Source: a virus. Taken from it: DNA of 41,721 nucleotides. The notes under the pieces were generated by a model that ran no database searches, was not told where the DNA came from, and saw nothing but the letters and a program-made list of their open reading frames with translations. The DNA lies in IMG/VR virus record IMGVR_UViG_3300001533_000706, positions 1 to 41,721 of that record, one strand, 5' to 3'. Positions 10,216 through 32,410 of the stretch are shown here, in pieces. Numbering within the stretch: position 1 is the stretch's first letter; each line of letters starts with the position of its first letter. Both the position numbers and the translations under genes were made by a program.

Positions 10216-11490
10216 TTAGCGCCGTAGCCTCGATGTGACCATATACTTGTCTAGCCCACTTTTATTCATTTTCATAAGTGCCGTTAATAACCATACAAGT
10301 GCGTCGAGTCTATTTGGACTATGTGAACTATATGGTGTCCAGCCACACAATTCAGCCTCAAGGTCATCAAAACTACCCACATGGTGAACCTTACCTTGCT
10401 CGTATAAATTAGCTATTGGCTCTGCCCGTACAGCCTTGCCGCGCGAAGCCCGCACCTTTTCAATTCTAGGTTTTAGCATGTCGCCCCAGTCTGCTGCGTC
10501 AAGGTTGGCAACAACCAAATCACCGCCAAAGTTGACCTCAGGTATGATCAAATCAACATCGTATAATCGGCACGCGTGCATAACAACCTCAGCCCACTGC
10601 TTAGGTGAATAGCGATTAGTTAAATCTTTTAAGATGTACGCCTCTTTGTCGTTGGTCACACCGCCTACAATGATTCCCACTTCATCAGCCGATGGATCAT
10701 TTGAGCCAGATGGGTCTATACCGATGCCGACTCGCACTAGCTTGTGTTTCGGCACTTCTTGAACACGATAAGGGTCAATCATCTCCCTAGTCCAAAGCGC
10801 ACCGGGTACTTCTTCTATATCCTCCGCCATGATCTCCTGCAAGAAAGCAGTTGAGGTCATATCCGCCCTACTACCCTCAATGGCCTCAGAAGAAATATAT
10901 GGATTATCATAGCTTGTGAAGTGAAAACGCTCCCAGCGCGGATCGTCTTTAACGGCCTTCCAGAGCTTGGCTGCATGTAACGGGTCACGCGCCTTACTGG
11001 TTGACCGCGACCGAAGGCTTGGTGGTGTATACACAAAGACCGCGTCACCATTGTTGTCTAGCAACATCGGCGCTCCCACTTCAGCCCAGGCCGTCTCGTC
11101 CATCAGTTGATACTCATCGAAAATTATAAGATCCCCGTAGTCGCCACGAAGACCATCAGCGTTCCAGGCTGTCTTTGCTCTTATACGCTGTTCGCTGCCT
11201 AGCAATTCGATTGTGTGCACCGTCTCATTCTTAACGAACACGCCCTCGTTAATGGGATCAGCCAATGCCCGGCTAACCTCAAACCAAAAGCGCTGTAGCT
11301 GCTCACTCGTGGGAACCGCATACAAGACACGCGCTCCCCGTAAGAAGCTCTCCACAGCCAATACAGATGTTCCCACTGTCTTTCCAGATCTTCGGCCAGC
11401 CCGGATAATCTTGCGTTTAGCCGTAGACGTGATGAATTTACGTTGTTTCTTGTGAGGTTCCCTGAGCCTGATTATCAGCGTCTTCTCCAT
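10216..11490 (-). CDS. terL: Terminase large subunit
   Basis: The 424-residue packaging motor combines an N-terminal ATPase and a C-terminal RNase-H-like nuclease. Walker A is R-A-G-R-R-S-G-K-T (residues 30-38) and Walker B is L-I-I-F-D-E (121-126). Nuclease acids are in G-I-D-P-S-G (257-262), I-P-E-V-N-F-G-G-D (about 316-324), and the C-terminal S-P-N-R-L-D-A-L-V-W. The start (AAAGGTGGTAT before ATG) lies 53 bases inside the end of the small-subunit gene. Length fits the Terminase_6 family. Confidence 0.95.
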   Translation of the reverse strand: MEKTLIIRLREPHKKQRKFITSTAKRKIIRAGRRSGKTVGTSVLAVESFLRGARVLYAVPTSEQLQRFWFEVSRALADPINEGVFVKNETVHTIELLGSEQRIRAKTAWNADGLRGDYGDLIIFDEYQLMDETAWAEVGAPMLLDNNGDAVFVYTPPSLRSRSTSKARDPLHAAKLWKAVKDDPRWERFHFTSYDNPYISSEAIEGSRADMTSTAFLQEIMAEDIEEVPGALWTREMIDPYRVQEVPKHKLVRVGIGIDPSGSNDPSADEVGIIVGGVTNDKEAYILKDLTNRYSPKQWAEVVMHACRLYDVDLIIPEVNFGGDLVVANLDAADWGDMLKPRIEKVRASRGKAVRAEPIANLYEQGKVHHVGSFDDLEAELCGWTPYSSHSPNRLDALVWLLTALMKMNKSGLDKYMVTSRLRR

Positions 11491-19364: not shown

Positions 19365-19718
19365 TCAGTCTCCCACGTTGATTTCATGGTCTGTCAATGC
19401 TCTCGTGGTATTGACGCGCAAAAACCCGTGCTTGTCGCGGTGGGTCCAATAGTGACCATTTTCCAAATGCATAAGACGAAACACTGGGTTACATGAGATT
19501 TCCATGCCACTCGAGCGATTGTATAGCCTAAAATCGCCATCTCCATTCTCAAAGAACTGAAAGAACAAAAGATCTTTCTCCTGATACAACCGTACCGACT
19601 GGAAATTCCGCAACCTATAGCTTTCGACCGCCTTTTCCGGAAAGTAAAACTTGTGCGATACGGGAAAGACGCTAACAACATTTTTCGGTAAGTTGCGTCG
19701 CTTTATAATCCGTTGCAT
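19365..19718 (-). CDS. Hypothetical protein, 117 residues, downstream of CCNNG arrays
   Basis: The protein has a basic N-terminus (M-Q-R-I-I-K-R-R-N-L-P-K) and an aromatic-rich middle that looks all-beta (L-L-F-F-Q-F-F-E-N-G-D-G-D-F-R-L-Y). No family is recognised. A purine stretch with GGAGG-like bases (AGGGTTGG) lies in the last bases before ATG. The 150 bases upstream hold two arrays of CCNNG pentamers and a 9-base-pair hairpin, so its mRNA leader, if it has its own, would be very unusual. Confidence 0.65.
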   Translation of the reverse strand: MQRIIKRRNLPKNVVSVFPVSHKFYFPEKAVESYRLRNFQSVRLYQEKDLLFFQFFENGDGDFRLYNRSSGMEISCNPVFRLMHLENGHYWTHRDKHGFLRVNTTRALTDHEINVGD

Positions 19719-19752: not shown

Positions 19753-19812
19753 CCTTGCATTGCCTTGCCGCGCCGCGCCCAGCCTAGCCGCGCCCCGCCA
19801 AGCCGCGCCTTG
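19753..19812. repeat. CCNNG pentamer array 1 (12 units)
   Basis: Twelve unbroken 5-base units with the form C-C/A-N-N-G: CCTTG, CATTG, CCTTG, CCGCG, CCGCG, CCCAG, CCTAG, CCGCG, CCCCG, CCAAG, CCGCG, CCTTG. Positions 1, 2 and 5 are fixed with one exception while the middle two vary. It lies upstream of the 117-residue gene. The context TTCCTTGCATTG at its start is repeated at the start of array 2. Confidence 0.85.
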
Positions 19813-19819
19813 GTTCTTT

Positions 19820-19851
19820 CTACCGCAGAAGGATTTCTCCCCCTGCGGTAG
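19820..19851. repeat. 9-base-pair inverted repeat between pentamer arrays
   Basis: Arms CTACCGCAG (19820-19828) and CTGCGGTAG (19843-19851) are exactly complementary around a 14-base loop that is C/T-rich on the plus strand. It lies between array 1 and array 2, which are not in the same 5-base phase. It may be a DNA cruciform, a protein site, or an mRNA hairpin. A short T-rich run on neither side argues for a terminator. Confidence 0.65.
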
Positions 19852-19854
19852 GTT

Positions 19855-19904
19855 CCTTGCATTGCATTGCCTCGCCTAGCCTAGCCGTGCCGTGCCTTGC
19901 CCTG
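19855..19904. repeat. CCNNG pentamer array 2 (10 units)
   Basis: Units are CCTTG, CATTG, CATTG, CCTCG, CCTAG, CCTAG, CCGTG, CCGTG, CCTTG, CCCTG. The array ends about 11 bases before the stop of the upstream gene (19916), so the intergenic gap consists almost wholly of repeats. Middle dinucleotides differ from unit to unit, which is not expected for simple slippage. Confidence 0.85.
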
Positions 19905-19915
19905 AGTATTTTCCA

Positions 19916-20464
19916 TCAACTAACCGTTACCGATTCCTTCTTAAGCTCTCCCCTCATTTCTGCTACGTGTTCATCTATCACCGTTGTTATCCCCTCCAAC
20001 TCTTGATATTGTCTGTATCTTTCGGCCCAGTATTCTGCTTCCTGTAGCGCTCGAACAATCACTTGCGACCGATAGTCATTGTTCTCCAATACGTCTTGAA
20101 GTGATACGTACGTGCGGTAAGGCAATGCCTCAACATCAACGTTAGGTTTATTGCTGGGCGTTTTGACTACATTGTAGAATGCCTTAATGGGCTTCGTTTC
20201 TTCTTTCTGATCAATGTAGTACACCTCAATTGATCGGATAAGGTAGCGAGCTTCATCTACCCGGTGCAAAAAGGCAGCCTCTTCATCGTCCCACGTGAAA
20301 TGCTTATGCAGTCTTGATTTTACATCTTCAGCCGCCTTCACAACCCTTTCGGGTCTAAGGTCTCCATCATGTTGCTTAAGTCGCTCTAGCTCTTCTCCAA
20401 CAACTTGTGCTTCTTCATCATTTAGTCGAAAGCCTTTCCTCGCTTGATACTGTGTTTTAGGCAT
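19916..20464 (-). CDS. Conserved phage early-region protein, 182 residues
   Basis: The start ATG overlaps the stop of the upstream gene by eight bases; a TTG start nine codons earlier is an alternative. Conserved-looking blocks are K-G-F-R-L-N-D-E-E-A-Q-V-V-G-E-E-L, then L-R-P-E-R-V-V-K-A-A, then L-H-K-H-F-T-W-D-D-E-E-A-A and A-R-Y-L-I-R-S-I. Proteins with this series are widespread in tailed-phage early regions but have no known function. The remainder is helical. It may bind DNA. Confidence 0.75.
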   Translation of the reverse strand: MPKTQYQARKGFRLNDEEAQVVGEELERLKQHDGDLRPERVVKAAEDVKSRLHKHFTWDDEEAAFLHRVDEARYLIRSIEVYYIDQKEETKPIKAFYNVVKTPSNKPNVDVEALPYRTYVSLQDVLENNDYRSQVIVRALQEAEYWAERYRQYQELEGITTVIDEHVAEMRGELKKESVTVS

Positions 20465-21056
20465 TTGTTTCGCCAATCGTAAATGTGCCAAATCTACCCC
20501 CTCGTTCAGGACGCCATGCGCCTACTCCTATTTTTTGTCCTGCAATGTACATCAGGTTAAGTAACGACGCTTTAGGTACTATGTCGTTGTCGAACCTTAA
20601 TCTAACTTGCGTTTTCCAGTCTAGGAACTCTGGCCTCACGGCTATATTCAACGCAGCCGTCATTCCACTATTCTTTACAAAGTCCTCCCTTCGCCGGATC
20701 TTGCTGTATTCAGTGATCTTGCAATACTCGTCTAAGACCAGAATATTGCGCCGGATTGTCGTAGTGTAGATGTCTTTCAAATCCTTGGTTGCTTCACATA
20801 GTGCTTCTAGAAAAGCTGCTCCCGGTATGGCATACTCGCCATCTTCGTTGTAATGAAAACACTGCTCATACTCAGCATCCAAGTCTCGATTCTTAGATGT
20901 CTTAATAACATTTCCATGTTCGTCAGGGATTCCCTTCACTGCGCTTCTTTGTGGTCTTCTGGGTATATATCCAGTCTGGCCGATTATGGGAATTGTGAGT
21001 TCTCGGAAATCACGCTCCATGATTGTTACTGCATTCCCTTCCTGTTTCTTCGCCAT
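20457..21056 (-). CDS. Conserved phage protein with GVG-WRPE-GG-FG motif, 199 residues
   Basis: The true start is the ATG at 21056 with AAAGGGGTGATTATC before it; a longer reading through the pentamer array gives an artefactual A-R-x-G repeat. The protein has an N-terminal beta region, I-P-G-A-A-F-L-E-A-L in the middle, and ends with I-G-V-G-A-W-R-P-E-R-G-G-R-F-G-T-F. This C-terminal signature recurs in early-region phage proteins of unknown function. The beta-rich fold and place next to annealing genes suggest nucleic-acid binding, by inference. Confidence 0.7.
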   Translation of the reverse strand: MAKKQEGNAVTIMERDFRELTIPIIGQTGYIPRRPQRSAVKGIPDEHGNVIKTSKNRDLDAEYEQCFHYNEDGEYAIPGAAFLEALCEATKDLKDIYTTTIRRNILVLDEYCKITEYSKIRRREDFVKNSGMTAALNIAVRPEFLDWKTQVRLRFDNDIVPKASLLNLMYIAGQKIGVGAWRPERGGRFGTFTIGETNA

Positions 21057-21083
21057 GATAATCACCCCTTTTAAGTGTCTTCG

Positions 21084-21143
21084 CTTTGCCTTGCCATGCC
21101 CCGCCATGCCTTGCCTCGCCTCGCCACGCCGTGCCAGGCCTCG
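21084..21143. repeat. CCNNG pentamer array 3 (12 units)
   Basis: Twelve units: CTTTG, CCTTG, CCATG, CCCCG, CCATG, CCTTG, CCTCG, CCTCG, CCACG, CCGTG, CCAGG, CCTCG. As with arrays 1 and 2 it fills the gap just upstream of a gene start (ATG at 21056) and just downstream of a stop (21150). On the minus strand the units read CNNGG. Any frame through it encodes a run of Ala-Arg-x-Gly-like residues. Confidence 0.85.
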
Positions 21144-31894: not shown

Positions 31895-32410
31895 CTAGAC
31901 GTTCACCTGTATGTCGCCGTTTTCATCAGACGCTGACGGCCAGCAAAATACCGCTATCTTGTCCTCGTCTGTATCATCAGCCGCGCCGTCAATGTCGATT
32001 GAAAACTCGCCCGATGCGTCAGTGTCGTCGGTGAAAAACTGTGGATAGCCCCATTTGGCTACTGCATAGACTGTTTCGCCAGCGCCAACCAGCGTGCCCG
32101 TGGTGTCTTTTAACGTGCCGGAAACAGTCGTAACTACAGCAACATACTCTTGACAGTTTTTCTTAGTGCCCACGTTCCCCCCGACAGCATAGCCTTTGCC
32201 ATCAATAGCAAACGCGGCTAAGTAGTTCTGCCCAACTGGCATGTCGGTCTTCGCTGTCCATGCGTTAGTATCAGGGTCGTACTCTTGACAGTCTTTATAA
32301 TCGCCCTGGATCCCCCCGACAGCGTAGCCTTTGCCATCAACCGCAAACGCGGCTAAGCCGTTCTGCCCAACTGGCATGTTGGTTTTGGGATACCATGTAT
32401 TAACGGCCAT
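31895..32410 (-). CDS. Two-Kelch-repeat protein with a C-terminal Ig-like domain
   Basis: Residues about 1-90 consist of two Kelch-type units, each with M-P-V-G-Q-N-x-L-A-A-F-A-x-D-G-K-G-Y-A-V-G-G. A third, partial unit merges with a carboxypeptidase-regulatory/CNA-B-like domain (S-G-T-L-K-D-T-T-G-T-L-V, G-E-F-S-I-D-I-D-G). Two blades cannot close a propeller, so it must be a fragment, an oligomer, or an adhesin module that grows and shrinks by recombination. It is in the fibre cluster, so a receptor-binding role is likely. Confidence 0.75.
   Translation of the reverse strand: MAVNTWYPKTNMPVGQNGLAAFAVDGKGYAVGGIQGDYKDCQEYDPDTNAWTAKTDMPVGQNYLAAFAIDGKGYAVGGNVGTKKNCQEYVAVVTTVSGTLKDTTGTLVGAGETVYAVAKWGYPQFFTDDTDASGEFSIDIDGAADDTDEDKIAVFCWPSASDENGDIQVNV
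32146..32403. repeat. Tandem 135-base repeat coding for Kelch units
   Basis: Two copies, 32146-32280 and 32281-32403 (second partial), share ACTCTTGACAGT at their starts and long identical blocks such as CCCCCGACAGC and GTTCTGCCCAACTGGCATG at the same offset. The near identity at DNA level, including synonymous positions, implies a recent duplication or ongoing gene conversion. Confidence 0.8.

What the first reader, a model, noticed from the sequence alone, without database searches (positions are those of the whole stretch)
19753..21143. Three arrays of CCNNG pentamers (34 units) in front of two early genes
Arrays at 19753-19812 (12 units), 19855-19904 (10) and 21084-21143 (12) are unbroken runs of 5-base units whose first two and last bases are nearly fixed (CC..G) and whose middle dinucleotide is free. 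That is not the product of slippage on one unit. Each array fills a gap between a stop and the next start on the minus strand, in the annealing/replication region. A 5-base period is half a DNA turn, so a filament or multimer could contact one side of the helix and then the other. The read-through frames (Ala-Arg-x-Gly runs) are often annotated as odd proteins, yet I know of no role for such arrays. Options are a replication origin, a site loaded by the ERF/OB-like proteins, or a translation/RNA element.
Basis: partly seen in the sequence, partly recalled or inferred. Interest (0 to 1): 0.85.

Follow-up and report, generated by a model that had tools for sequence, protein, structure and literature searches.

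The report
Phage VIPR locus with three guides
The odd five-base repeats are the guide-RNA genes of a recently described phage weapon called VIPR, which uses a CRISPR-like protein to bind DNA by reading two letters and skipping one, and one of the three guides appears to be aimed at a regulator gene of a close relative of this phage.

Summary
The arrays are real: 34 pentamers (12+10+12) at the stated coordinates, reading C-NN-GG (GGC/NN) on the gene-sense (minus) strand. They are not origins, annealing-protein sites or slippage products. They flank a two-gene cassette. Gene 20457-21056 encodes a RAMP/Cas7-fold protein whose family profile matches the solved SUSP1 Vipr (PDB 36pp, E=6e-44). Gene 19916-20464 encodes a family (phrog_15946) seen here only beside Vipr. 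This is a VIPR (Viral Interference Programmable Repeat) system, described in a 2026 preprint (PMC13142463): the NN dinucleotides of the array RNA pair with DNA under a one-base-skip rule. Vipr genes lie in 85 of 120 array-bearing viral loci and 0 of 56 control loci. Array 21084-21143, read by that rule, matches 22 of 24 bases in a helix-turn-helix gene of contig L313. L313 carries the closest terminase found (64% identity) and was fetched by that terminase, not by the guide. Skipped bases are codon wobble positions. Only 1 of 60,000 control guides did as well. No target was found for the other two guides. Verdict: a new member of a known, very recent kind, with a computed (not experimentally shown) natural target and a non-SUSP1-type accessory gene.

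The parts
21084..21143 (-). Guide 1 (vrRNA repeat tract), 12 YNNGG units, in the leader of vipr; NN = GA CT AC GT GA GA AA AT GG AT AA AA; target candidate L313:1071-1106
   Evidence: Sequence; target match and controls
20457..21056 (-). vipr gene, 199-aa RAMP/Cas7-fold protein (phrog_4652)
   Evidence: phrog_4652; PDB 36pp SUSP1 Vipr E=2.7e-8 alone, 6.1e-44 as family profile; AlphaFold2 pLDDT 90.6, Foldseek best matches Csm3/Cmr4/type VII Cas7
19916..20464 (-). vap gene (VIPR accessory protein), 182 aa, phrog_15946 family; likely ATG start 20464, overlapping the end of vipr
   Evidence: phrog_15946; the 28 loci with this family all carry Vipr, 0 of 56 control loci; pLDDT 90.8, no solved fold match
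19855..19904 (-). Guide 2, 10 YNNGG units; NN = AG AA AC AC TA TA GA AA AA AA; no target found
   Evidence: Sequence; target searches
19820..19851 (-). 14-bp RNA hairpin directly after guide 2; possible vrRNA tail or processing stem
   Evidence: -25.8 kcal/mol, z -6.3, 0 of 200 shuffles as stable
19753..19812 (-). Guide 3, 12 YNNGG units; NN = AA GC TT GG GC TA TG GC GC AA AA AA; no target found
   Evidence: Sequence; target searches

Best explanation
The region is a phage VIPR locus. The three arrays are transcribed on the minus strand as vrRNAs. Copies of the RAMP-fold Vipr (20457-21056) line up along the RNA, one per 5-nt YNNGG unit, holding the constant GGY and exposing each NN. Each NN pairs with two bases of target DNA and one target base is skipped, so 12 units read about 35 bp. 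Binding would silence a competing phage's gene, helped by the accessory protein (19916-20464). Guide 1 is aimed at a helix-turn-helix gene of a close relative of this phage. Shown here: array anatomy, protein family and fold, gene linkage, and the target match of one guide. Inferred from the published SUSP1 work (PMC13142463): transcription, loading, skip-rule pairing and repression.
For: Arrays are GGY/NN with all 16 dinucleotides used. Vipr homology and fold. Vipr in 85/120 array-selected versus 0/56 control viral loci. Accessory families found only near Vipr or arrays. Same layout in L096 and annotated phages with different dinucleotides. Guide 1, one-base skip, matches 22/24 bases in L313, the contig with the closest terminase; skips 0, 2, 3 reach 16, 18, 18; 1 of 30,000 shuffled and 0 of 30,000 codon-phase control guides reach 22; 0 of 790 Bacillota genomes at <=2 mismatches. 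The preprint describes exactly this code.
Against: No transcript or binding data for this phage. Guides 2 and 3 have no target in what is held. Two dinucleotides of guide 1 mismatch L313. No tail shared by the three arrays was seen, unlike the invariable tail described for SUSP1. The host is unknown.
Confidence: 0.94

Rival explanations
1. It is a VIPR locus, but the L313 match is a coincidence of a common protein motif and the real targets are unknown.
For: The site covers the start of an HTH_38-like domain, whose D-L-T-x-E-E motif recurs in proteins; two dinucleotides mismatch.
Against: Codon-phase guides from unrelated phage genes never reached 22/24 in 30,000 trials; no match at <=2 mismatches in 790 genomes; the single hit in all viral contigs of the pattern relaxed at one base is in the nearest relative.
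Confidence: 0.12
2. The arrays are cis-acting RNA leaders: repeated triplets bound by a protein ring (as TRAP binds NAG repeats) to control translation of the next gene.
For: 5-nt period, 10-12 units, arrays directly upstream of start codons.
Against: Other loci carry many arrays in tandem, also after the cassette; the linked protein is a RAMP; the dinucleotides of guide 1 match a foreign gene.
Confidence: 0.04
3. DNA element: replication origin or loading site for the ERF/OB-like recombination proteins.
For: The arrays lie between the Erf and DnaD-like replication genes.
Against: Arrays follow Vipr, not Erf or replication genes, across phages of unrelated hosts; near the arrays of LESphi2 the genes listed are repressor, Cro and sigma-like genes rather than replication genes.
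Confidence: 0.01

Closest known systems
VIPR of Escherichia phage SUSP1 (type II; PMC13142463; PDB 36pp) and the near-identical locus of Felixounavirus wV8
   Same: Vipr RAMP, adjacent vap gene, GGY/NN arrays before and after the two genes, phage-encoded, one-base-skip match to another mobile element.
   Different: Vipr only about a quarter identical; constant triplet GGC here, mostly GGT in wV8; accessory gene of the phrog_15946 family, not the phrog_5926-type family of wV8 gp94; no shared structured tail seen, but a 14-bp hairpin after one array.
VIPR-type cassettes of Mycobacterium cluster F phages (Saal gp51/52) and cyanophage Cy-LDV1 (g34/g33), annotated there as hypothetical
   Same: phrog_4652 plus phrog_15946 pair flanked by GGCNN arrays.
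   Different: Arrays there are longer and staggered, joined by a 4-base GGCA step; the window has three discrete arrays.
Class 1 CRISPR-Cas backbone RAMPs (Cas7, Csm3, Cmr4)
   Same: RAMP fold (Foldseek E 2.3e-7 to 1e-5); in the known complexes, a filament on guide RNA with periodic unpaired bases.
   Different: No CRISPR repeats and spacers at these arrays; a contiguous guide is replaced by spaced dinucleotides; no cas gene among the window genes searched.

Membership tests
VIPR | Vipr: RAMP-fold protein of the SUSP1 Vipr family | tested here: met
VIPR | Arrays of 9-16 YNNGG units, GGY constant and NN hypervariable | tested here: met
   12, 10 and 12 units, 30 of 34 perfect; all 16 dinucleotides used and C->T the main departure across loci
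VIPR | vap accessory gene next to vipr | tested here: met
   phrog_15946 family; 28 of 28 loci with it carry Vipr. Not the SUSP1-like accessory family
VIPR | Arrays in the intergenic regions flanking vipr/vap | tested here: met
VIPR | Target recognised through NN with a one-base skip | tested here: met
   Guide 1 by computation only; guides 2 and 3 no target. No binding assay.
VIPR | Invariable structured 3' tail on the vrRNA | tested here: inconclusive
   Hairpin after guide 2 only; no tail common to the three arrays
VIPR | Arrays transcribed to small RNAs that co-purify with Vipr | not testable with these tools
   Needs RNA sequencing and pull-down
VIPR type II (SUSP1) | Type II accessory gene (vap1) | tested here: not met
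   wV8 gp94, beside a Vipr nearly identical to SUSP1's, matches the phrog_5926-type profile at 4.1e-25 and not the profile of the window's accessory. That gp94 is vap1 is inferred.
CRISPR-Cas class 1 | CRISPR repeat-spacer array and several cas genes | tested here: not met
   Pentamer arrays instead; no Cas family among the window proteins searched; not every window gene was searched
TRAP-type leader | (G/U)AG triplets bound by a TRAP ring | tested here: not met
   Fixed triplet is GGC; linked protein is a RAMP
Replication origin | Replication starts at the site | not testable with these tools
   Needs marker-frequency mapping

The most novel reading that the evidence does not exclude
This clade is a VIPR variant in which guides sit in the leaders of mRNAs, including that of vipr itself, without a dedicated shared tail, so that loading of Vipr on its own leader would couple guide production to control of vipr expression.
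Probability: 0.2. Interest if true: 0.65.

Novelty: new member of a known kind. Interest (0 to 1): 0.55.

Why it matters
VIPR is a months-old discovery whose experiments rest mainly on two related type II systems. This locus supports the one-base-skip code, by computation, in a system with a different accessory gene, and names a testable natural target: a regulator-like gene of the nearest relative found. It also turns 'odd Ala-Arg-Gly proteins' and unexplained pentamer repeats in phage annotations into readable guides.

Tried and rejected
(1) Chance or slippage: excluded. (2) Pattern scan of bacterial genomes: many hits are from high-GC genomes and only 3 of 120 stretches have Vipr. (3) Exact 8-unit scans of the three guides over viral contigs gave 22, 8 and 26 hits, near chance; a 9/10 match of guide 2 that recurs in ten contigs is one repeated site and was not accepted. 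(4) 224 guides from other loci against 4.1 Mb of local sequence on both strands: no excess for any skip length tested. (5) Host identification by Vipr in 151 genomes and by terminase in about 400 Bacillota genomes: nothing. (6) Relatives of the L313 target gene in viral contigs: none; homologue in the window: none. (7) Close Vipr relatives by peptide pattern: none. (8) Rfam element: none in the window. (9) Vap fold: no match; weak ferritin-like sequence hits (E=0.005) not believed. The type I-VII assignment could not be made because the preprint's supplement was not readable here.

Full report
What is there. Read on the strand of the genes they are runs of CNNGG, equivalently GGC then two free bases. 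The (GGCNN)5 pattern occurs 16 times on the minus strand of the window, never on the other strand, and never as the reversed control. Array 21084-21143 lies in the leader of gene 20457-21056; the other two lie after gene 19916-20464, separated by a 14-bp hairpin at 19820-19851.

How widespread. Over 407 arrays in those loci and the window all 16 dinucleotides are used while G, G and C are kept; when C is lost it is mostly to T (169 of 220 departures), so the constant part is GGY. In annotated phages a BLAST of one array found Mycobacterium cluster F phages, a Gordonia phage, a cyanophage and Pseudomonas LESphi2. In those examined, except the Omegavirus Wanda, arrays flank the same pair of genes of unknown function: phrog_4652 followed by phrog_15946 or phrog_5926.

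What the pair is. The window's phrog_4652 protein matches a solved chain named SUSP1 Vipr protein (PDB 36pp, E=2.7e-8); the profile of 56 array-linked relatives matches it at 6.1e-44. Its predicted structure (pLDDT 90.6) has Cas7-type RAMPs (Csm3, Cmr4, type VII Cas7, gRAMP) as its best solved matches. The literature search led to the preprint PMC13142463, which describes VIPR: Vipr, an ancestral RAMP; vrRNAs of 9-16 YNNGG repeats; DNA recognition by the NN bases with one skipped base between dinucleotides; and use against competing mobile elements. Before the search I had read the protein by eye as RAMP-like and half-recalled the system's name; both were leads, and the tests are the calls cited.

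Linkage tested here. Vipr lies in 85 of 120 array-selected viral loci and in none of 56 viral loci fetched by unrelated patterns. Two accessory families never occur together in one locus; all 28 loci with the window's family carry Vipr, 25 of 27 with the other do, and neither occurs in the controls. The wV8 locus, whose Vipr is nearly identical to SUSP1's, has the phrog_5926-type accessory, so the window's accessory (phrog_15946) belongs to another branch. Its predicted fold has no solved match. The closest relative, L096 (Vipr 48%, accessory 45% identical), repeats the layout array-vipr-vap-array with different dinucleotides.

What the guides read. With the one-base skip, guide 1 spells GA.CT.AC.GT.GA.GA.AA.AT.GG.AT.AA.AA. 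Among all local sequence the best match in a contig not chosen by a guide is L313:1071-1106, GAC CTA ACG GTC GAA GAA AAG GTC GGG ATC AAG CAC: 10 of 12 dinucleotides, 22 of 24 bases. L313 was fetched because its terminase is the closest found to the window's (64% identity). The site is in frame, codon third bases are the skipped ones, and the gene encodes a 121-aa helix-turn-helix protein (HTH_38, E=5.7e-6, 26.4 bits against a cut-off of 27) of which the window has no copy.

Controls for the target. Skips 0, 2 and 3 reach only 16, 18 and 18 of 24 in the related contigs. Of 30,000 unit-shuffled guides one reached 22, and of 30,000 guides made from codon positions 1-2 of unrelated phage genes none did. 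No other of 43 related records matches with up to 3 mismatches, and the reversed pattern matches nowhere. The site relaxed at one base occurs once in all viral contigs, in L313. No match with up to 2 mismatches was found in 790 Bacillota genomes. The relaxed pattern was chosen after the hit, so one search shows rarity, not independent discovery. Three guides were tried, so the shuffled rate should be multiplied by about three. Guides 2 and 3 have no convincing target in what is held. A scan of 224 guides from other loci against unrelated local phage sequence showed no excess at any skip, as expected if true targets are rare and specific.

Mechanism. Shown: anatomy, protein family and fold, linkage, target match of one guide. 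Inferred from the SUSP1 experiments: transcription, filament of Vipr on the RNA, DNA binding, silencing, help by the accessory protein. Most likely use: repression of a regulator-like gene of a related phage competing for the same host. The host itself is unknown: a DnaD-like gene and a baseplate gene point to Bacillota, while the terminase is 52% identical to that of Methanosarcina virus MetMV.

Verdict. The origin and annealing-protein ideas are not supported. It is a new member of a very recently described kind, with a different accessory branch and a plausible natural target.

Noticed in passing
L355 (phage wV8) 1827-2380 and 3412-3800: The deposited 'DR_4' repeats lie in the GGT-rich array stretches flanking the wV8 vipr/vap genes and appear to be the shared vrRNA tail rather than unexplained direct repeats.
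   Followed up: partly
L253:3961-4764 (Trine gp40), L254:2988-3146 (ByChance gp39): Annotated hypothetical proteins that read through GGCNN arrays (Ala-Arg-x-Gly runs); the array part is probably not coding.
   Followed up: no
L106:5276-5560, L110:11116-12220, L058, L068, L249:3865-4115: Staggered arrays: successive tracts joined by a 4-base GGCA step (GGCAGGC), with AG as the last dinucleotide in 55% of tracts in loci with the phrog_15946 accessory.
   Followed up: partly
L015:6351-6980, L042:7742-9112: Very long arrays (138 units in L015; 50 and 56 in L042), far beyond the 9-16 units described; could be many fused guides.
   Followed up: no
37 loci, e.g. L010, L016, L028, L095: Array-linked Vipr without either of the two accessory families found here; other accessory genes were not examined.
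   Followed up: no
window 32145-32397: Two 83%-alike tandem copies of a 135-bp unit, inside or overlapping the ORF at 31895-32410.
   Followed up: no
window 10216-11490: Terminase is 52% identical to that of Methanosarcina virus MetMV although the replication genes look Bacillota-like; the host of either may be misassigned.
   Followed up: no
window 19365-19718: 117-aa gene directly after guide 3 with no family match and no relative in any locus held.
   Followed up: partly
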